The position numbers and the translations under genes are program-made. A stretch of DNA of 64,000 nt from a virus. The stretch covers positions 1-64,000 of IMG/VR virus record IMGVR_UViG_3300025000_000061; one strand, given 5' to 3'. The notes beneath the pieces were generated by a model that worked only from the letters and a program-made list of their open reading frames with translations, was not told where the DNA came from and ran no database searches. Positions within the stretch are counted from its first letter, which is position 1. Each line of letters starts with the position of its first letter. This document shows positions 28,441 through 48,251 of this stretch, one piece after another.

Positions 28441-28824
28441 ATGGGATTTATGACAACATTAACATTTCTTAATGATGGATTTGACCAGATTGAAAAACAT
28501 CCTGAACAATTTATTGAAGCAATTAAATTAGGTATTAACGGAATTGATAAATACCATAAAAATTCAGGTAGAAAGTTTATTACTACTCATGGTATTGGGT
28601 TTCATGTAAATTTAGTAAAAGTTGCTAAATCTCATCATGCAGATGATTATAGATTATATTTAGTTGGTAGAAATACAATGACCACATTTGGATATGCGAA
28701 TGAGATCGATGATATTAAATATAGAAAAGAATTAGTAGAAATAGCTAAGTTTATTATTGAGGAAGAAGAAAATAGGATTAAAAAGTTAGAAAAACATTTA
28801 AAAGGAGAAATAGAATATGAATAA
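28441..28824 (+). CDS. Hypothetical protein (127 aa)
   Basis: Site GGAGGG. Starts MGFMTTLTFLNDGFDQIEK and has His-rich strands (HGIGFHVNLVKVAKSHH). The end overlaps the Thg1-like gene by eight bases, so the two are translationally coupled. Confidence 0.7.
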   Translation: MGFMTTLTFLNDGFDQIEKHPEQFIEAIKLGINGIDKYHKNSGRKFITTHGIGFHVNLVKVAKSHHADDYRLYLVGRNTMTTFGYANEIDDIKYRKELVEIAKFIIEEEENRIKKLEKHLKGEIEYE

Positions 28825-29587
28825 AAAAGATGGTTTAGGTGACAGAATGAAGAATTATGAAAATGTTACACGTAATCATTTAATTAGGAGAGTGCCAGTT
28901 ATAATTCGCATAGACGGTAAGGCATTTCACTCATTTACAAAAGGATTTCAAAGACCATTTGATGAAATATTAATTTCAACTATGCAACAAACAGCAAAAT
29001 ATTTTTGTGAGAATATTCAAGGTTGTAAATTAGCATATACACAATCAGATGAAATAACTTTGTTATTAACTGATTATGAAACTATTGGAACGCAGGGATG
29101 GTTTGATTATAATATTCAGAAAATAGTGTCTGTATCTGCAAGTATGGCAACATTAGCATTTAATAAAATATTTAGAAATATATATGATGAAATTGATTTA
29201 GAAAATATATCAGATTATGTTGACATCTATCGAAAAAGAATTGGTAATGCAATGTTTGATTCAAGAGTATTCAATATTCCCAAAGAAGAAGCATGTAATT
29301 GTTTTATTTGGAGACAGCAAGATTGCACAAGAAATGCTATTGAAATGGTAGGTAGAAATTATTTTAGTCATAAAGAATTGCACAAAGTAAATTGTAATCA
29401 GATTCAAGAAAAATTATTTCAAGAAAAAGGTATTAATTTTAATGATTTACCAACTTATCAGAAACGTGGTAGTTGTATAGTTAAAGAGCAGTATGATAAG
29501 GACGGTACTGAACGTAGTAGATGGATTATTGATAAAGATATACCTATATTTACTCAAAATAGAGATTACATTGAGAAATATTTGTAA
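28817..29587 (+). CDS. Thg1-like 3'-5' nucleotidyltransferase (256 aa)
   Basis: Member of the tRNA(His) guanylyltransferase superfamily, which adds nucleotides in the 3'-5' direction to tRNA 5' ends. Evidence: KKDGLGDRMKNYE start, metal-binding RIDGKAFHSFTKGFQRPFD (about 33-51), second metal Asp in YTQSDEITLLL (about 75-85), then SVSASMATLAFN, FDSRVFNIP and WRQQDCTRNAI. Length matches bacterial Thg1-like proteins, which mostly repair truncated tRNA 5' ends. Coupled to the gene upstream. A phage copy may repair host tRNAs damaged by anticodon or acceptor nucleases; that role is inference. Confidence 0.88.
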   Translation: MNKKDGLGDRMKNYENVTRNHLIRRVPVIIRIDGKAFHSFTKGFQRPFDEILISTMQQTAKYFCENIQGCKLAYTQSDEITLLLTDYETIGTQGWFDYNIQKIVSVSASMATLAFNKIFRNIYDEIDLENISDYVDIYRKRIGNAMFDSRVFNIPKEEACNCFIWRQQDCTRNAIEMVGRNYFSHKELHKVNCNQIQEKLFQEKGINFNDLPTYQKRGSCIVKEQYDKDGTERSRWIIDKDIPIFTQNRDYIEKYL

Positions 29588-39301: not shown

Positions 39302-39724
39302 TTGAAAATATTACATAATGCTCAGTGTTATAAGCAAGATAGGGAGTTGGATTGGAGAGGGTGGTGTCCGAAGAGGGGTGAGATTTATTTGTGTCAATTG
39401 GGTAATGAAGGTCTTATATATTCAGAGATTAAGGGGTATCGTCCCGTATTGGTTGTGTCAAATAACATAGCAAACAAACATAGTCCAGTAGTTTCTATTA
39501 TACCATTAACTTCTAGTCAAATAAAAAATAATAATATGCCTGTTCATGTTAAAGTAGGAGTAGAAGAAGGGTTACGAACTTCGAGTTTAATTTGTTGTGA
39601 GCAGACTAAAACCGTATCTAAAAATCGTATGTTCATAAATGGTAGTTTAACTAGAATTTGTAAATTGAGTAGTAAATCGATGTGTAAAGTGGACGAGGCA
39701 ATACGAATACAATTTGGATTGTAA
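39302..39724 (+). CDS. mazF: Orphan MazF/PemK-family ribonuclease toxin (140 aa)
   Basis: Predicted sequence-specific mRNA interferase. The SH3-like barrel spans about residues 24-140: PKRGEIYLCQLG, GYRPVLVVSNN (RP at 47-48), HSPVVSIIPLTSS (catalytic-type Thr70), SSLICCEQTKTVSKNRM and the end KVDEAIRIQFGL. The first 20 residues are an extension. TTG start behind AGGAGAG. No antitoxin-like gene is upstream or downstream, which is unusual for the family. Separated from the 43180 HTH-MazF fusion by the HNH endonuclease and agr genes. Confidence 0.88.
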   Translation: MKILHNAQCYKQDRELDWRGWCPKRGEIYLCQLGNEGLIYSEIKGYRPVLVVSNNIANKHSPVVSIIPLTSSQIKNNNMPVHVKVGVEEGLRTSSLICCEQTKTVSKNRMFINGSLTRICKLSSKSMCKVDEAIRIQFGL

Positions 39725-39873
39725 ATAAATTGGGAATAGATTATAAATATAAATTATAATATATATTATCATATATTATAAAAGGGTGTGATGTCTTTGA
39801 TTGTGTAAAAATAAATTAAAAAGTTATTGTGTTTAAATTGTATCTATTAAAAAATAATATAAAAGGAGGATAT

Positions 39874-41412
39874 ATGTTAGTAAAAAATCAAAAAGTTAAA
39901 ATGAATTGGAGTGGAAGTAATAGAAAACATTATGAATTAAAAGGATATCCTTTTACTAATTATAATGATGAATTTGAAGTTAAAATAGAGGATTTAGCAC
40001 CAAAAAGTCAAAAATATGTTTTGATTAGATGTGATTATTGTGGGATACCTTTTTTGAGAAGGTATGTAAATCATAATACAAGAAAAGAGAAATATGGTAT
40101 AAATGATAAAGATTGTTGTGATGATTGTAGAGCATATAAAAGAGAAGAAACATGTTTAGATAAATATGGTGTTAAAAACGCTGCTCAGACAGAAGAAATA
40201 CAAAATAAAATAAAAAGAACAATTAAAGAAAAATATGGAGTAGAATATATTTCTCAATCAGAAGAAATTAAAAACAAAAAGAAACAAACTTGTTTAGATA
40301 AATATGGAGTAGAATATACCTTACAAGTGCCAGAAATTAGAGAAATAATTACAGAAACTAATATAAATAAATATAGATGTGAAAATCCATTTCAAGCAGA
40401 AGAAATTAAAGAAAAAATAAGACAAGTCAATATGGATAAATATGGAGTTGAATATGCTTCCCAATCTTTAGAAGTGAAAGAAAAAACCAAACAAACTAAT
40501 TTAATAAAATATGGGAAAGAATACTACTTACAAACAGATGAATACAAAGAAAAGATTAAACAAAATAACCTAGACAAATACGGAGTAGAATATTATTCAC
40601 AAACAGAAGAATATAAAAACAAATATAAGCAAACCTGTCAAAATAAATATGGTGTTGATAATGTTTCACAAGTTCCAGAAATTGCAGAAAAAATTTCACA
40701 ATCACGTACAAAAGAATTTAAAGATTTGACAAATATAAAATTTAACCATTTAACAGTAATTTCTTTAGTACCTGATAAAACAAATAAGCACCATGATAGG
40801 TATTGGCTATGCGAATGTGATTGTGAAAATAAAACTAGAAAGGAAATTTCAGAAAATCATTTAGTTAGAGGAAATATTAAAAGTTGTGGGTGTATACGAA
40901 AAGAATCATTAATTGAAAGATGGGAAGGTAAAACAAAAAAGGATATATATCCTTATTACAAAGAAATATATTGTACATATGATAGTATGAGAAAAAGATG
41001 TTATAATGAAAAACATGATAATTATAAAAGATATGGTGGTAGAGGAATAATTATTTGTGATGAATGGTTGAATGATTTTATGAATTTTTATAATTGGGCA
41101 ATAAAAAACGATTATAAAGAAGGATTAACTATTGAAAGAATTGATTATGATGGCAATTATGAACCTGATAACTGTAAATGGGCAACATGGGAAGAACAAA
41201 GTTATAATAAATCAAATACGTTATACATAGAAGTAGACAATGAAATGAAAACAGTTAAACAATGGTCTGATGAAACAGGGATACCTCAACATATAATATA
41301 TCAAAGATATGCCAGATATAAAAGAAAAGATAAAAAAGAATTAGAGTTATTAACTAAAGAAAAATTCTTTAAACCAGTTAGACAACTCAAAAGAAAGGGT
41401 GATGTTGTCTGA
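39874..41412 (+). CDS. Repeat-rich HNH/homing-type endonuclease-like protein (512 aa)
   Basis: ATG 39874 follows AAAAGGAGG; the frame back to 39829 has no site. Residues about 45-85 contain CDYCG and CCDDC, a zinc pair. Residues 95-290 hold eight copies of a CLDKYGVEYxxQxxEIKEK repeat, known from phage proteins and thought to aid DNA binding. A second Cys site (CECDC, CGC) follows, then a C-terminal HNH/AP2-like region: YDSMRKRCYN, YGGRGIIICDEW, TIERIDYDGNYEPDNCKWAT and an HTH tail. Probably a selfish endonuclease inserted before the agr genes. Its stop overlaps the next gene. Confidence 0.78.
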   Translation: MLVKNQKVKMNWSGSNRKHYELKGYPFTNYNDEFEVKIEDLAPKSQKYVLIRCDYCGIPFLRRYVNHNTRKEKYGINDKDCCDDCRAYKREETCLDKYGVKNAAQTEEIQNKIKRTIKEKYGVEYISQSEEIKNKKKQTCLDKYGVEYTLQVPEIREIITETNINKYRCENPFQAEEIKEKIRQVNMDKYGVEYASQSLEVKEKTKQTNLIKYGKEYYLQTDEYKEKIKQNNLDKYGVEYYSQTEEYKNKYKQTCQNKYGVDNVSQVPEIAEKISQSRTKEFKDLTNIKFNHLTVISLVPDKTNKHHDRYWLCECDCENKTRKEISENHLVRGNIKSCGCIRKESLIERWEGKTKKDIYPYYKEIYCTYDSMRKRCYNEKHDNYKRYGGRGIIICDEWLNDFMNFYNWAIKNDYKEGLTIERIDYDGNYEPDNCKWATWEEQSYNKSNTLYIEVDNEMKTVKQWSDETGIPQHIIYQRYARYKRKDKKELELLTKEKFFKPVRQLKRKGDVV

Positions 41413-42080: not shown

Positions 42081-42881
42081 GTGGAACAAAATATTATAAA
42101 TGCGATATTGAATTTTTTCACAATTAGTTTGTTCGAGGAGTTAGGTATAGTTTTACTAATTTTAATATTTTTAAAAAGATTTGATTTACTTGATAAATAT
42201 ATGTGGAGATGGAATATAAAATGGATAATTTTGCCTACAATTTTAACGTCATTCTCCATAAATATATTTATATACATAATACCAAATTTTATATTAAAAT
42301 TTTTTGTTTCTATTATTGTTTTATACTTTTCTATAAATTATATCTTAATTAAAACAGACCCATTAGATGAAAAAATAAAATGGTATAAAATATTAATCAG
42401 TATAATATTAAGCATAGTTATGATAACAAGTGCAGAAATAATATATTTACCAATAATGCTTCAATATGTTAATCAACCAATAGAAATATTGAATAATAAT
42501 ATGTTATTAAAATTTATAGTAAGTTTGCCAGCAAAAACATTTCAAGTGTTATTGATTTATTTCATGTATAAAAAACATAATCAAAGTGAAAAATATGTTT
42601 CTAATATTTTAAAAGATAGAATATTATCTTTAGTTACAATTAGTTTTACTGGTTTAATATTGTTTGCTTTAACATGTATAGTAAAAATTGTAATTAGTTC
42701 AGAAATGATTGGTAAATATTCAATACAAACTCAAATGATGATTAGTGTATTAATAACAATTGTACCAACAATACTAATATTTCTTTATATCATACCAATT
42801 AATTACCTATTATCACGATTATTCAGAATACAACAGAGTTATCAACAAATGTATGATGATGTTGATGATACTGATGTATAG
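42081..42881 (+). CDS. Polytopic AgrC-sensor-like protein lacking a kinase (266 aa)
   Basis: GTG start behind AAGGGAG. About seven hydrophobic segments (near 9-30, 47-66, 69-89, 102-125, 145-165, 186-208, 217-240), after which the protein ends in a 25-residue acidic tail. Segment five (IVSLPAKTFQVLLIYFMYKK) resembles the corresponding part of AgrC sensor domains. No DHp helix, HATPase motifs or response-regulator partner follow. It ends 33 bases before agrD. Could be a receptor, decoy or immunity protein for the peptide. Homology is by pattern only. Confidence 0.6.
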   Translation: MEQNIINAILNFFTISLFEELGIVLLILIFLKRFDLLDKYMWRWNIKWIILPTILTSFSINIFIYIIPNFILKFFVSIIVLYFSINYILIKTDPLDEKIKWYKILISIILSIVMITSAEIIYLPIMLQYVNQPIEILNNNMLLKFIVSLPAKTFQVLLIYFMYKKHNQSEKYVSNILKDRILSLVTISFTGLILFALTCIVKIVISSEMIGKYSIQTQMMISVLITIVPTILIFLYIIPINYLLSRLFRIQQSYQQMYDDVDDTDV

Positions 42882-42913: not shown

Positions 42914-43039
42914 ATGAAAAAATATACTCTTTTAGTCGTAGCTGGTTTTATTGCTTTAGTTGCTACTGCACTTACTAATTCCGTAGCATCTTTCATGGGA
43001 TTGAATCAACCTAAGAGTCCTTCTATGTTAGTAAAGTAA
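42914..43039 (+). CDS. agrD: AgrD-type cyclic (Ser-lactone) autoinducer precursor (41 aa)
   Basis: Peptide pheromone precursor processed by AgrB. Strong site AAAGGAGGTGA. Layout: basic-hydrophobic amphipathic leader (residues 1-25), core SFMGL (about 27-31), then NQPKSPSML. The QPK-x-P tail right after a five-residue core is the clostridial AgrD signature. Ser takes the place of the usual ring Cys, so the product would be a lactone rather than thiolactone, as known for some staphylococcal species. AgrB is 1.5 kb downstream in the same direction. Confidence 0.82.
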   Translation: MKKYTLLVVAGFIALVATALTNSVASFMGLNQPKSPSMLVK

Positions 43040-43055
43040 TATGACTACATAGAAA

Positions 43056-43093
43056 ATTCTAAAGTAGAGTGTTTACTTCCTCTACTTTAGAAT
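43056..43093 (+). terminator. Perfect 14-bp hairpin between agrD and the HTH-MazF gene
   Basis: ATTCTAAAGTAGAG (43056-43069) and CTCTACTTTAGAAT (43080-43093), loop TGTTTACTTC. Followed by A-rich sequence on the + strand, so it is a poor rho-independent terminator in this direction. May act as a 3' stabiliser or processing site for a short agrD transcript. Confidence 0.55.
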
Positions 43094-43179: not shown

Positions 43180-44055
43180 ATGATGTTATTTAATAAAAAA
43201 GAAATTCTTAAAAAAGATAATCTTGTGGATGATAAATTTAAAAAAGAGATGGCATTTTTAGTATTTAAAGCAAAAGGTAGACGAAATATTGAACAATTCG
43301 TAAAAGACATGAAAATGTTTGATCCTACACCAATCGTTAATTTAATAAATAAAAATTATAATGAATTACCTGATAGAAAATTATTAAGGAAAATAGCCGA
43401 TAATAGTATGGGAATGGTTAATTTTAGGATATTATATGATCTCTGTGGTTACTCCGAGAGAGATCCTGAAGAAGATCGTAGTTGGATAAAATGGGTTCCA
43501 AGATGGGCAGAAGTTTATATGTGTGATCTAGGCATAGGAGAGGATTGTATTCAAGGAGGGAAAAGAAATGTATTAATAATTCAAAATAATAAAGGCAACC
43601 AACACTCACCGAATGTATCTATATTGCCAATATCCAGTAAATGTAAATTTAACCATATGCATATACTATTAGAAAAAGAATTGGGTTTTGAAAGGGATAG
43701 TTACGCATTGTCAGAAATGCCATTAACTGTAAGTAAGAGGAGGTTCTTTTATAATACAGTACCTTATAAAATTACAACACTTTCAGATTTTAAAATGAAA
43801 GAAATACAGGTATGTCTTGAGAAACAATTTGGATTTTTACCACTTTATTTTGACGTAGAACATGCATTTGAACTAGTCAGACATATAAAAAATCTAGAAC
43901 AAAATATAAAAATCAAAAAATCACATAATTTAGTAGATATTATGGAAGATAAATTAAATGACCTAAAAGAATACTGTTCAAAATACAAAAAGAATTATCA
44001 ACATTACCTACAAGAATACGATAGAATCAATAACTATGGTATTCAAGCAATATAG
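43180..44055 (+). CDS. HTH-like domain fused to MazF/PemK domain (291 aa)
   Basis: Site AAGGAG. Residues about 34-92 (NIEQFVKDMKMF, then LPDRKLLRKIADNS and RILYDLCGYSE) have the pattern seen in Cro/C1-type HTH regulators of clostridia. Residues 107-220 are a MazF barrel: PRWAEVYMCDLG, KRNVLIIQNN, HSPNVSILPISS, LTVSKRRFF and EIQVCLEKQFGF, parallel to the orphan toxin at 39302. Residues 225-291 form a coiled tail. The toxin Thr is replaced by Ser in PISS and the RP is RN, so RNase activity is uncertain. It could be a self-regulated toxin or a repurposed regulator in the agr locus. Confidence 0.75.
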   Translation: MMLFNKKEILKKDNLVDDKFKKEMAFLVFKAKGRRNIEQFVKDMKMFDPTPIVNLINKNYNELPDRKLLRKIADNSMGMVNFRILYDLCGYSERDPEEDRSWIKWVPRWAEVYMCDLGIGEDCIQGGKRNVLIIQNNKGNQHSPNVSILPISSKCKFNHMHILLEKELGFERDSYALSEMPLTVSKRRFFYNTVPYKITTLSDFKMKEIQVCLEKQFGFLPLYFDVEHAFELVRHIKNLEQNIKIKKSHNLVDIMEDKLNDLKEYCSKYKKNYQHYLQEYDRINNYGIQAI

Positions 44056-44126: not shown

Positions 44127-44600
44127 ATGATTAACGAACACAAATTAAAGTATCTATGCAACAAATATGGTATTAATTATCAAGTATTTCATGCAACAGA
44201 TACCATATTAATAGATGCAAAATTAGATATATGGGAGGTGAAATATTATGAAGAAATACAAAAAAAATTAAATTTATTATACAATAAACAAAAAGAAATT
44301 CAATTGCAATTATTATCTCCTGTATTAGATGAACCAATTAAGAAAAAATTATTATATGAATATGAAAAAATAAACAAAAAAATAAAAGAAACAAAACCAT
44401 ATTATTTACTTCATAAAAATAAATCTGATAATAAATTTAGCAATCAGCACACACAAGGATGGAAGAAAAATTTATATCAAGTAATAACTTTTATATTAGC
44501 ACATAAAAGAGTTTTATATGGCATCCAATTAGGAAAGCCATATATACATAAGCACAATATTAAAATAAATAAGAAGGGAAAAGTATGTTTAAATACATAA
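44127..44600 (+). CDS. Hypothetical protein of the agr locus (157 aa)
   Basis: AAAAGGAG site. A Lys-rich coiled region lies at 45-95; QHTQGWKKNLYQVITFILAHKRVLYG is the most protein-like block. Overlaps agrB by 16 bases, so co-translated. No family recognised; might be a partner of AgrB or of the MazF fusion. Confidence 0.7.
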   Translation: MINEHKLKYLCNKYGINYQVFHATDTILIDAKLDIWEVKYYEEIQKKLNLLYNKQKEIQLQLLSPVLDEPIKKKLLYEYEKINKKIKETKPYYLLHKNKSDNKFSNQHTQGWKKNLYQVITFILAHKRVLYGIQLGKPYIHKHNIKINKKGKVCLNT

Positions 44601-45271
44601 GATACCTATTAACATTCCGATATATCAAACTAATATCCTATATATCTGCTAAATATCTTCATAATAAAATACCTGTATTCCCACTAATAGATTCAAAAGT
44701 TTTATTAAAATTTTTACCAAAAAATATGTTAGATTTATTTGAAAATTTACATCAACAATCTAAATTAAAACCATATAAACTTAAATATGTTTATTACTAC
44801 GGTTGTCAAATCATCATAGGAGGCATTAACAAATTCCTACTCTTAATCACACTAGGCATCCTACTCAACATCCTCCCATATCTCATACTAACAACAATAT
44901 CATTCGTATCATTGCGAATTTGGTCTGGAGGGTTACATTTTGACTCTTACTCTAAGTGTGCCTACATTTCACTCTTATCATTTACAATCATGGCACTATT
45001 AGCAAAATACATCTACATATCAACCATACCTACTATATTAATATTCTTAATTGTCTTAATTTTAATTCTATTATATGCACCAGTAGAGCATCCCAACAGA
45101 CCAATAAAAAATAACGAAAAAGTTAAATTTAAATTAATTTCAATTTTCTCATTGTTAATATTACTATTAGTTATTTTATGCGTAAATAATATTATTATCT
45201 GTAATTCTATAGTGTTTGGAGTGCTATTAGCAGGTATAATTATGTTGCCTATTATAAACAAACTGAAATAG
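44585..45271 (+). CDS. agrB: AgrB family peptide protease/exporter (228 aa)
   Basis: Membrane endopeptidase that cleaves the AgrD C-terminus, cyclises the core and helps export it. Catalytic pair in RIWSGGLHFDSYSKC: His118 and Cys125, the same seven-residue spacing as the staphylococcal His77/Cys84. The YAPVEHPNRPI motif (about 164-174) is the other AgrB hallmark. Hydrophobic segments at about 80-110, 125-165 and 180-225. The N-terminal region is some 40 residues longer than staphylococcal AgrB. Starts inside the previous gene behind AAGGGAA. The order agrD ... agrB, with two genes between, departs from the usual adjacent pair. Confidence 0.88.
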   Translation: MFKYIRYLLTFRYIKLISYISAKYLHNKIPVFPLIDSKVLLKFLPKNMLDLFENLHQQSKLKPYKLKYVYYYGCQIIIGGINKFLLLITLGILLNILPYLILTTISFVSLRIWSGGLHFDSYSKCAYISLLSFTIMALLAKYIYISTIPTILIFLIVLILILLYAPVEHPNRPIKNNEKVKFKLISIFSLLILLLVILCVNNIIICNSIVFGVLLAGIIMLPIINKLK

Positions 45272-45434: not shown

Positions 45435-45466
45435 TATAAATAATAACATAATAATATTAGGAGGAG

Positions 45467-45703
45467 ATTGCAACGAATAGTGAAAAAATTTATACAATCA
45501 AAGATGAAAAAGGTAATTTTGTTCATGGTGATGGTATTAGAAAGATCGGCAAAGAATATTATTATTTGCCATATGAAAGTTTAAAAGATGGCTGTATTGT
45601 TTATACTAATAAAATAAGAGTAGAGAAGGCTCTGAATAATCTTGAAATACATAATCGATTAGGTGAGTTAGGACATAAATTTATTATTGAACTTGTCTCT
45701 TAA
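45467..45703 (+). CDS. Small protein behind SOS promoter (about 75 aa, start unclear)
   Basis: After AGGAGG the coherent protein (YTIKDEKGNFVHGDGIRKIG, then KEYYYLPYESLKDG) ends at TAA 45701. The frame has no ATG/GTG/TTG near the site. Either ATT 45467 is used, or one A is missing from the A-run at 45483, in which case TTG 45468 or GTG 45480 starts it. No family recognised. Its position, SOS-controlled and just before the repressor genes, suggests an induction factor. Confidence 0.6.
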   Translation: MATNSEKIYTIKDEKGNFVHGDGIRKIGKEYYYLPYESLKDGCIVYTNKIRVEKALNNLEIHNRLGELGHKFIIELVS

Positions 45704-47186: not shown

Positions 47187-48251
47187 ATGGTAAAGCATAA
47201 AAATGGTAAGATTAACTTAGCAGAGAGAGTATTTAAACATGATAGAGATGTTAAAGAAGAATTTTTAAAAGATATTAAACCATCAACTGCAAAAACTATA
47301 AGAAGCATACTTTTTAAAGTAGATGATTATGAAGATCGAATCGGTAAAAGTATATATGATTTTACCTTTGAAGAGCGTGATGATTTCTTTATTTCTCAGT
47401 TTTGTAATAAAAGTAAGGGCGTTATTAATACAACAAGATCATATTTAGTAAAGTATATTAACCATTGTATTGATAACAACCTTGTTAGACATATGGAGAA
47501 TAGGTTTGATTTAATTTCTAAAGATGATATTGATAAATATATTAATGATACTGCAATGCAAATGAAATATCTATCTAGAGAAGAAATTAAAGAAGCACAG
47601 GATAAATTAGTTAATAATTGTGATAAGTTAATTTTGCAATTAATACCTTTGTCTGTCAGAGGGCGTACAGAATTGAATAATACTAATGAAGAATTAATTA
47701 ATTTGAGAGTAAAAGATGCTGAAGAATCTTATGAAACAGGTATTTTGCATGTCTGGAATAATGACGGTGATAGAAGACCTGTGAAAATTGATGAAGAAAC
47801 AATAGAATTATTGAAAAAGACAATAAATGATGATAGTTATATTATTAATAACGGAAGCATTTATGATAAAAAAGGGAGAATACTTGGCAGGGGTATCGGA
47901 GAAAAATGTTTTCCTTTAAATGATACTGGTTATGTATTTAGAACTGCTGGTAAGAATAAAAAAGGAAAAGTTAAAACTAATTTTTTTGGTTCTAGGATGA
48001 GAATAATGAAAACCTGGACGATGAATCCATTTATCACCGTAACGAATTTGTATTATTCTGGAATTATCGATTATGCTATGCAATTAAGAAAAGAAAAAGG
48101 TACAGAATTAGATAATCATGATTATATTAAAATAATTGATAAGTTTTCTTATGGTAAACCACAAATACTATCAAACAAAGAATTAGATTGGAGTGTACCA
48201 ATATCAAAAGTAAAATCTATGGTGGAAGATTATATTAATAGAAAATTATAA
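47187..48251 (+). CDS. Integrase-fold phage repressor, YopR/MrpR-like (354 aa)
   Basis: Probable lysogeny master repressor. Site AAGGAGGTG. Residues 20-110 fit a tyrosine-recombinase core-binding (SAM-like) domain. Residues 140-215 (LQLIPLSVRGRTELNNTNEELINLRVKDAE, then PVKIDEETIELLKK) follow the catalytic-domain fold. The C-terminal part where HxxR and Tyr should be reads ITVTNLYYSGIIDYAM, so the recombinase residues seem lost. SPbeta MrpR is likewise an integrase-like DNA binder without recombinase function. Length is slightly above YopR (about 325 aa). Confidence 0.75.
   Translation: MVKHKNGKINLAERVFKHDRDVKEEFLKDIKPSTAKTIRSILFKVDDYEDRIGKSIYDFTFEERDDFFISQFCNKSKGVINTTRSYLVKYINHCIDNNLVRHMENRFDLISKDDIDKYINDTAMQMKYLSREEIKEAQDKLVNNCDKLILQLIPLSVRGRTELNNTNEELINLRVKDAEESYETGILHVWNNDGDRRPVKIDEETIELLKKTINDDSYIINNGSIYDKKGRILGRGIGEKCFPLNDTGYVFRTAGKNKKGKVKTNFFGSRMRIMKTWTMNPFITVTNLYYSGIIDYAMQLRKEKGTELDNHDYIKIIDKFSYGKPQILSNKELDWSVPISKVKSMVEDYINRKL

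What the first reader, a model, noticed from the sequence alone, without database searches (positions are those of the whole stretch)
42914..43039. AgrD with serine as ring residue: predicted lactone peptide SFMGL
The 41-aa precursor has leader, core and QPK-x-P tail of clostridial AgrD, but no Cys anywhere. Ser27 occupies the ring position. Ser-lactone autoinducers are known but rare, and an element-specific core would give private signalling.
Basis: partly seen in the sequence, partly recalled or inferred. Interest (0 to 1): 0.8.

Follow-up and report, generated by a model that had tools for sequence, protein, structure and literature searches.

The report
Phage serine-lactone signal beside lysogeny repressor
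A bacterial virus carries its own gene for a small ring-shaped signalling peptide, closed through a serine instead of the usual cysteine, next to its main dormancy switch, where related viruses keep a quite different peptide signal; these viruses may therefore count each other with another chemical language when choosing between killing the host and lying dormant.

Summary
The 41-aa ORF is a real AgrD. The window lies on a 151,782-bp virus record, and relatives in IMG/VR carry the same gene block. Across 17 distinct relatives the position six residues before the Q of QPK is Ser in 16 and Cys in one, while the other ring residues vary. This is the pattern expected of a ring nucleophile with lineage-specific cores. 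AgrB is present with its His/Cys dyad.

The surroundings matter more. The block is DUF5317, 7-helix membrane protein, AgrD, helical-domain–MazF fusion, AgrB. It sits directly upstream of homologues of SPβ YopQ and MrpR, the master lysogeny repressor. In SPβ and phi3T the arbitrium genes aimR–aimP lie upstream of yopQ–yopR. Searching with YopQ alone gave 15 loci. Thirteen carry the block, one is truncated, and one (3.4 kb of upstream sequence) lacks agr. No AgrC-type kinase, LytTR regulator or AimR was found.

Best reading: a kinase-less agr system making a cyclic lactone, placed in the lysogeny module of SPβ-like phages and probably standing in for arbitrium. The lactone is well supported. The lysogeny role is inferred from position. 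Receptor and output are guesses.

The parts
39302..39724 (+). Stand-alone MazF/PemK-family protein; a MazF gene also lies upstream of the block in several relatives, so it may belong to it
   Evidence: Pfam PemK_toxin E 2.8e-24; a MazF ORF upstream of DUF5317 in L002, L024, L026, L047, L048
41409..42008 (+). DUF5317 membrane protein, probably starting at a CTG that overlaps the stop of the upstream HNH gene
   Evidence: Pfam DUF5317 E 3.9e-15; one copy per record, beside the block, in 11 of 12 records; the start is inferred by comparison with L002
42020..42048 (+). Predicted promoter TTGACA-17-TAATAT with TGn extension, upstream of the membrane protein and agrD
   Evidence: Consensus scan in corresponding positions of relatives; not tested experimentally
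42081..42881 (+). Seven-helix membrane protein, candidate AIP receptor without kinase domain
   Evidence: No Pfam match; seven long helices in a low-confidence AlphaFold model, pLDDT 69; no fold match; present beside agrD in every relative
42914..43039 (+). AgrD precursor; Ser26 ring nucleophile, predicted lactone core SFMGL
43055..43093 (+). Stable hairpin just downstream of agrD, without a following T-run
   Evidence: Hairpin present in all 11 first relatives, z -2.5 to -6.5 against dinucleotide shuffles, stem sequences differing; also in most of six more; no Rfam match
43180..44055 (+). Helical N-terminal domain (HTH-like) fused to a MazF-fold domain
   Evidence: Pfam PemK_toxin E 1.4e-14; MazF structures E 8e-30 with the family profile; residues 18-89 modelled as five helices, pLDDT about 78-91; catalytic-position Arg invariant, Ser/Thr conserved
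44127..44600 (+). Optional protein of unknown function between the MazF fusion and AgrB
   Evidence: Homologues by position and sequence in L002, L003, L038, absent in the other lineages
44585..45271 (+). AgrB peptidase/cyclase, His118 and Cys125
   Evidence: Pfam AgrB E 7.4e-37; His118/Cys125 invariant in 11 aligned relatives and H-x6-C present in six more
45461..45703 (+). Small conserved protein between AgrB and the YopQ homologue
   Evidence: 65% identical to an 86-aa ORF in the same place in L002
45810..47183 (+). Homologue of SPbeta YopQ
   Evidence: 26% over 372 aa, E 3e-25, to SPBc2 YopQ; phrog_5732
47187..48251 (+). Homologue of SPbeta MrpR/YopR, master repressor of lysogeny
   Evidence: 26%, E 3e-19, to SPBc2 YopR; Pfam MrpR_N_CB; adjacent to YopQ as in SPbeta

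Best explanation
A phage-borne, kinase-less agr system in the lysogeny-control module of an SPbeta-like phage. (1) AgrD is anchored by its hydrophobic leader. (2) AgrB cuts after Leu30 through Cys125, forming an acyl-enzyme. (3) Ser26 rather than Cys attacks it, giving the five-residue lactone SFMGL, perhaps with a short N-terminal tail after a second cut. (4) The lactone leaves the cell and accumulates with the number of infected or lysogenic cells. (5) It is read at the membrane, most likely by the seven-helix protein encoded just before agrD. (6) The output reaches the MazF fusion and the YopQ-MrpR repressor operon and biases lysis against lysogeny, the job arbitrium does from the corresponding place in SPbeta and phi3T. 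Shown by sequence: the parts, the conserved Ser/Cys position, AgrB with its dyad, the fixed gene order, the YopQ and MrpR homologues, and the absence of detectable AgrC kinase, LytTR and AimR in the records tested. Inferred from established agr chemistry: steps 1-4. Inferred from position only: steps 5-6.
For: Ser/Cys at the ring position in 17 of 17 distinct homologues, 16 Ser and 1 Cys, with ring residues 2-5 variable (entropy about 2.0-2.2 bits over 11 sequences). Cys in the same register in bacterial AgrD. AgrB strong Pfam match with invariant His and Cys. Block conserved in 13 of 15 loci found by YopQ alone. YopQ and MrpR homologues in the SPbeta order. Arbitrium lies upstream of the same genes in SPbeta and phi3T. 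MrpR is the SPbeta master repressor (PMC10516654) and arbitrium acts through MazF (PMC10769878), and MazF domains are built into this block. No HATPase_c_5 or LytTR in eight records although the controls respond.
Against: No chemistry, expression or phenotype data. The window peptide alone is below the AgrD cut-off. The seven-helix protein has no sequence or fold match and no detectable relation to AgrC sensors, so the receptor is a guess. The HTH-like reading of the fusion rests on a predicted model and by-eye resemblance; profile searches did not confirm it. AimR absence was tested only with Bacillus sequences, with no positive control. L058 has YopQ and MrpR without agr in 3.4 kb upstream. 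Hosts are unknown and the records are incomplete.
Confidence: 0.6

Rival explanations
1. The peptide is a phage-made agr signal that acts on the host's own agr receptors (host manipulation or interference with host quorum sensing) and is not part of the lysis-lysogeny decision. The membrane protein and DUF5317 would be export or immunity accessories.
For: phiCDHM1 carries agr genes without a response regulator and its authors proposed host-directed roles (PMC3901668). No kinase or response regulator is present here. AIPs commonly cross-inhibit.
Against: The block is locked beside YopQ-MrpR in 13 of 15 YopQ loci. The peptide travels with its own membrane protein and a MazF fusion, and ring residues differ between close phage lineages.
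Confidence: 0.22
2. AgrB and AgrD make a peptide that works as a toxin or entry-exclusion factor against other phages or cells, with the membrane protein as its immunity protein and the MazF proteins as a toxin-antitoxin or abortive-infection unit.
For: MazF domains in the block, and a second membrane-protein paralogue in some lineages, as immunity genes can duplicate.
Against: AgrD/AgrB products studied so far are signals. Five-residue hydrophobic rings with variable residues behind a fixed nucleophile match AIPs. The lysogeny operon is an odd place for a bacteriocin.
Confidence: 0.08
3. Ser26 is not the nucleophile: the product is linear or closed elsewhere, and the conserved Ser only supports recognition by AgrB.
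For: Ring closure was not tested. Some relatives have Cys elsewhere in the precursor (L002, L003, L038, and a tail Cys in several).
Against: The only other residue seen at this position is Cys (L059). The other Cys positions are not conserved. The register equals that of bacterial Cys AgrD.
Confidence: 0.08

Closest known systems
agr system of Gram-positive bacteria (AgrBDCA), serine-lactone forms: S. pseudintermedius AIP and E. faecalis Fsr/GBAP
   Same: AgrB with His/Cys dyad; short AgrD with hydrophobic leader, Ser in the ring position, five-residue ring as in the staphylococcal AIP, conserved tail with P-x-x-P
   Different: No AgrC histidine kinase or AgrA; tail lacks the acidic residues of staphylococcal AgrD; genes lie on phages beside MrpR; the membrane protein is unrelated to AgrC by profile comparison
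phage-borne agr: phiCDHM1 (C. difficile), and Davies, Emery, Abouo
   Same: Phage-encoded AgrB and AgrD; the Davies group also has membrane proteins without a kinase domain next to the integrase and repressor region
   Different: phiCDHM1 keeps an AgrC-like kinase (PMC3901668). The Davies membrane proteins show no profile similarity to this one and its AgrD candidate lacks Ser/Cys at the position. No MazF fusion and no YopQ-MrpR annotated next to agr in Davies
arbitrium (AimR-AimP-AimX) of SPbeta-group phages
   Same: Secreted phage peptide encoded upstream of yopQ-yopR(mrpR); link to MazF (PMC10769878); candidate hairpin after the signal gene
   Different: Arbitrium uses a linear peptide read inside the cell by AimR; here a cyclic peptide made by AgrB, presumably read at the membrane; no AimR or AimP found
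MazF/PemK mRNA interferases
   Same: MazF fold, conserved Arg and Ser/Thr in the catalytic positions
   Different: Fused to an N-terminal helical domain and to a C-terminal extension in some lineages; no MazE identified

Membership tests
AgrD (TIGR04223) | Curated profile score of at least 19 bits | tested here: not met
   Window peptide 14.6 bits; relatives in G002, G003, G004 score 20.1, 31.8, 30.7, so the group passes though this member does not
AgrD (TIGR04223) | Cys or Ser ring nucleophile at a fixed distance before the conserved tail | tested here: met
   16 Ser and 1 Cys in 17 distinct homologues; same register as bacterial Cys AgrD
AgrD (TIGR04223) | Encoded beside AgrB | tested here: met
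   AgrB 44585-45271, two genes away; same block in relatives
AgrD (TIGR04223) | Product is a secreted cyclic (thio)lactone | not testable with these tools
   needs mass spectrometry
AgrB (PF04647) | Family profile and catalytic His/Cys | tested here: met
   E 7.4e-37; His118 and Cys125 conserved
Complete agr two-component system | AgrC-type histidine kinase (HATPase_c_5) | tested here: not met
   No match in eight records, controls respond; the neighbouring membrane protein has no kinase domain
Complete agr two-component system | AgrA-type LytTR response regulator | tested here: not met
   No match in eight records, controls respond
SPbeta-like phage lysogeny module | Adjacent YopQ and MrpR homologues | tested here: met
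   MrpR in 11 of 12 records
SPbeta-like phage | SPbeta-type terminase/virion genes | tested here: inconclusive
   YonF homologue on records G003, G004, G007, G011 but not found on the window's own, possibly partial, record
Arbitrium | AimR receptor and AimP peptide | tested here: not met
   No AimR match; only Bacillus AimR used and no positive control, so a distant AimR could be missed

The most novel reading that the evidence does not exclude
A lineage of SPbeta-like phages uses a cyclic lactone made by its own AgrB/AgrD in place of arbitrium to set lysis against lysogeny. The signal is read at the membrane by a kinase-free seven-helix receptor that acts on a MazF fusion and MrpR, so two unrelated peptide languages have occupied the same slot in one phage decision operon.
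Probability: 0.42. Interest if true: 0.92.

Novelty: new variant of a known kind. Interest (0 to 1): 0.77.

Why it matters
agr genes in phages have been known since 2014, but what they do there has stayed open. Here an agr-type signal is fixed beside the master repressor in a whole group of phages, where SPβ and phi3T carry arbitrium, and MazF domains are built into the block. That makes the question directly testable and would extend peptide-guided lysis-lysogeny decisions to a second, chemically unrelated signal that is presumably sensed outside the cell. The natural Ser-to-Cys change in one relative gives a built-in control for lactone against thiolactone.

Tried and rejected
Chance ORF: rejected, conserved in 17 distinct loci. 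Spurious Cys rings from upstream or tail Cys residues: rejected, not conserved. AgrC sensor domain for the seven-helix protein: profile comparison with GHKL AgrC proteins and with the Davies membrane proteins negative, and AlphaFold plus Foldseek uninformative at pLDDT 69; kept only as a functional guess. HTH for the N-terminal domain: not confirmed by Pfam or PDB sequence search. Search of the species-level genome collection with the MazF fusion and with the membrane protein: no relatives, hosts not found. Annotated phages and plasmids: no close relatives of AgrD or AgrB. MrpR operator search by repeated words: only promoter-like repeats, nothing assignable. A broad YopQ alignment including SPβ was too diverse to search with. 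DUF5317: no literature and no plasmid match. Rfam: no match in the region.

Full report
What was checked. The ORF at 42914-43039 is present as described: MKKYTLLVVAGFIALVATALTNSVASFMGLNQPKSPSMLVK, 41 aa, no Cys, with a strong ribosome-binding site. The ring serine is Ser26. The window is part of a virus record of 151,782 bp. The peptide alone is a sub-threshold AgrD match (14.6 against 19 bits), but AgrB at 44585-45271 is unambiguous (Pfam E 7.4e-37).

Conservation of the serine. Searches of IMG/VR with AgrB, the MazF-like protein, the membrane protein, MrpR and YopQ gave 17 distinct loci with an AgrD, the window included. Anchored on the Q of QPK, the residue six places upstream is Ser in 16 and Cys in one, L059 (VQTACRFWFFQPEEDQTP). 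The predicted cores of the first eleven are SFMGL, SAWTF, SAAWL, SLMWL, SWFFA, SYFIS, SRFFF, SWAFS, SWLGA, SWLFT and SWLFS. Column entropy over these eleven is zero at the Ser and at Q, P and the second P, and about 2.0-2.2 bits at the four other ring positions. A Paraclostridium plasmid AgrD has Cys in exactly this register. AgrB keeps His and Cys in an H-x6-C motif in all relatives. Cys residues elsewhere in some precursors are not conserved in position.

Surroundings. The same genes flank agrD in the relatives: DUF5317 (one copy per record, 11 of 12 records), a seven-helix membrane protein, agrD, a MazF-fold protein with an N-terminal helical domain, and agrB. Some lineages have a second copy of the membrane protein before the YopQ homologue (L026, L041, L048, L055, L052, L061), and in L052 and L061 agrB has moved upstream of DUF5317. 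Stand-alone MazF genes lie upstream in several. The HNH gene at 39829-41412 (DUF7487, homing-endonuclease type) lies between the stand-alone MazF and DUF5317 in the window; L024 and L047 lack such a gene there, so it looks like an insertion.

Link to SPβ. The next genes are homologues of SPβ YopQ (26%, E 3e-25) and of MrpR/YopR (26%, E 3e-19), in the same order as in SPβ. In SPBc2 and phi3T the arbitrium genes aimR and aimP lie upstream of yopM-yopQ-yopR. MrpR is the master repressor of SPβ (PMC10516654), and phi3T arbitrium works by controlling host MazF (PMC10769878). Because a search with agr proteins could only find loci that have agr, YopQ alone was used as bait. Of 15 loci, 13 carry the block with AgrD, AgrB, membrane protein, MazF fusion and MrpR; L057 is cut 0.9 kb upstream; L058 shows a MazF but no agr in its 3.4 kb. 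Four of the records also carry an SPβ-type terminase. The window's own record gave replication genes (ligase, helicase, primase, RecJ, ribonucleotide reductase) but no terminase match, and may be partial.

What is missing. No HATPase_c_5 kinase and no LytTR regulator were found in eight records although control genomes respond. No AimR was found, with the caveat that only Bacillus AimR was used and there was no positive control. The membrane protein has no family, no fold match and no profile similarity to AgrC.

Regulatory features. A strong hairpin follows agrD within a few tens of bases in all eleven first loci (z -2.5 to -6.5), with stems of different sequence that still pair, some closed by a UUCG loop; most of the six further loci show one too. 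It lacks a T-run, so it is not a textbook terminator. It could be an attenuator, a 3' stabiliser or, as DNA, an operator. Promoter-like sites precede the membrane protein and, in most loci, the MazF fusion. These are consensus matches only.

How it most likely works. AgrB cleaves AgrD and Ser26 closes a five-residue lactone. The lactone accumulates outside and is read at the membrane. The response biases MazF activity or MrpR repression, and so lysis or lysogeny. The chemistry follows from established agr biochemistry and from Ser-lactone precedents (PMC12312760, PMC3673130). The lysogeny role follows from position. Receptor and output are conjecture.

Relation to known systems. Phage agr genes are known: phiCDHM1 with an AgrC-like kinase, and the Davies/Emery/Abouo phages with kinase-less membrane proteins (PMC3901668). 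A 2025 review also mentions agr homologues in SPβ-like phages in passing (PMC11945551), which I could not trace to a described locus. New here, as far as this library shows, are the Ser-AgrD clade, its fixed place beside YopQ-MrpR, and the MazF fusion within it. I file it as a new variant of a known kind.

Noticed in passing
window 39829-41412: Large HNH/homing-endonuclease-type gene (DUF7487) lying between the stand-alone MazF and DUF5317. L026 and L048 have a different HNH-type gene there, while L024 and L047 have none, suggesting repeated insertion next to the signalling block.
   Followed up: partly
L059:5425-5568: The only relative with Cys instead of Ser at the ring position, and with extra residues in the QP..TP tail: a natural lactone/thiolactone switch.
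   Followed up: partly
L026:10761-11594, L041:8634-9455, L048:8716-9567: Second copy of the seven-helix membrane protein between AgrB and YopQ in some lineages, possibly a second receptor or decoy.
   Followed up: no
L035:3286-4602 (Paenibacillus rhizovicinus plasmid): AgrB with an AgrD that has Ser at the corresponding place (ASPWLTNSPDVP) and a membrane protein without kinase, on a 229-kb plasmid; possibly a related minimal agr.
   Followed up: partly
L034:26243-28658 (Brevibacillus phage Davies): Two related membrane proteins, AgrB and a short AgrD-like peptide lacking Ser or Cys at the expected place, between integrase and repressor genes.
   Followed up: partly
window 28817-29587: ORF that reads as a tRNA-His guanylyltransferase (Thg1-like) by eye.
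   Followed up: no
L007:11834-12787 (record positions 135834-136787): ORF that reads as an aspartate/ornithine carbamoyltransferase by eye, unusual for a phage.
   Followed up: no
L005:8564-9778 (record positions 92564-93778): ORF that reads as a PARP-like ADP-ribosyltransferase with a WGR domain by eye.
   Followed up: no
record positions 73238, 83174-83217, 89970-90012: Repeated element ACTATATGTAGTAT in inverted pairs between or near genes; possible operator or hairpin family.
   Followed up: no
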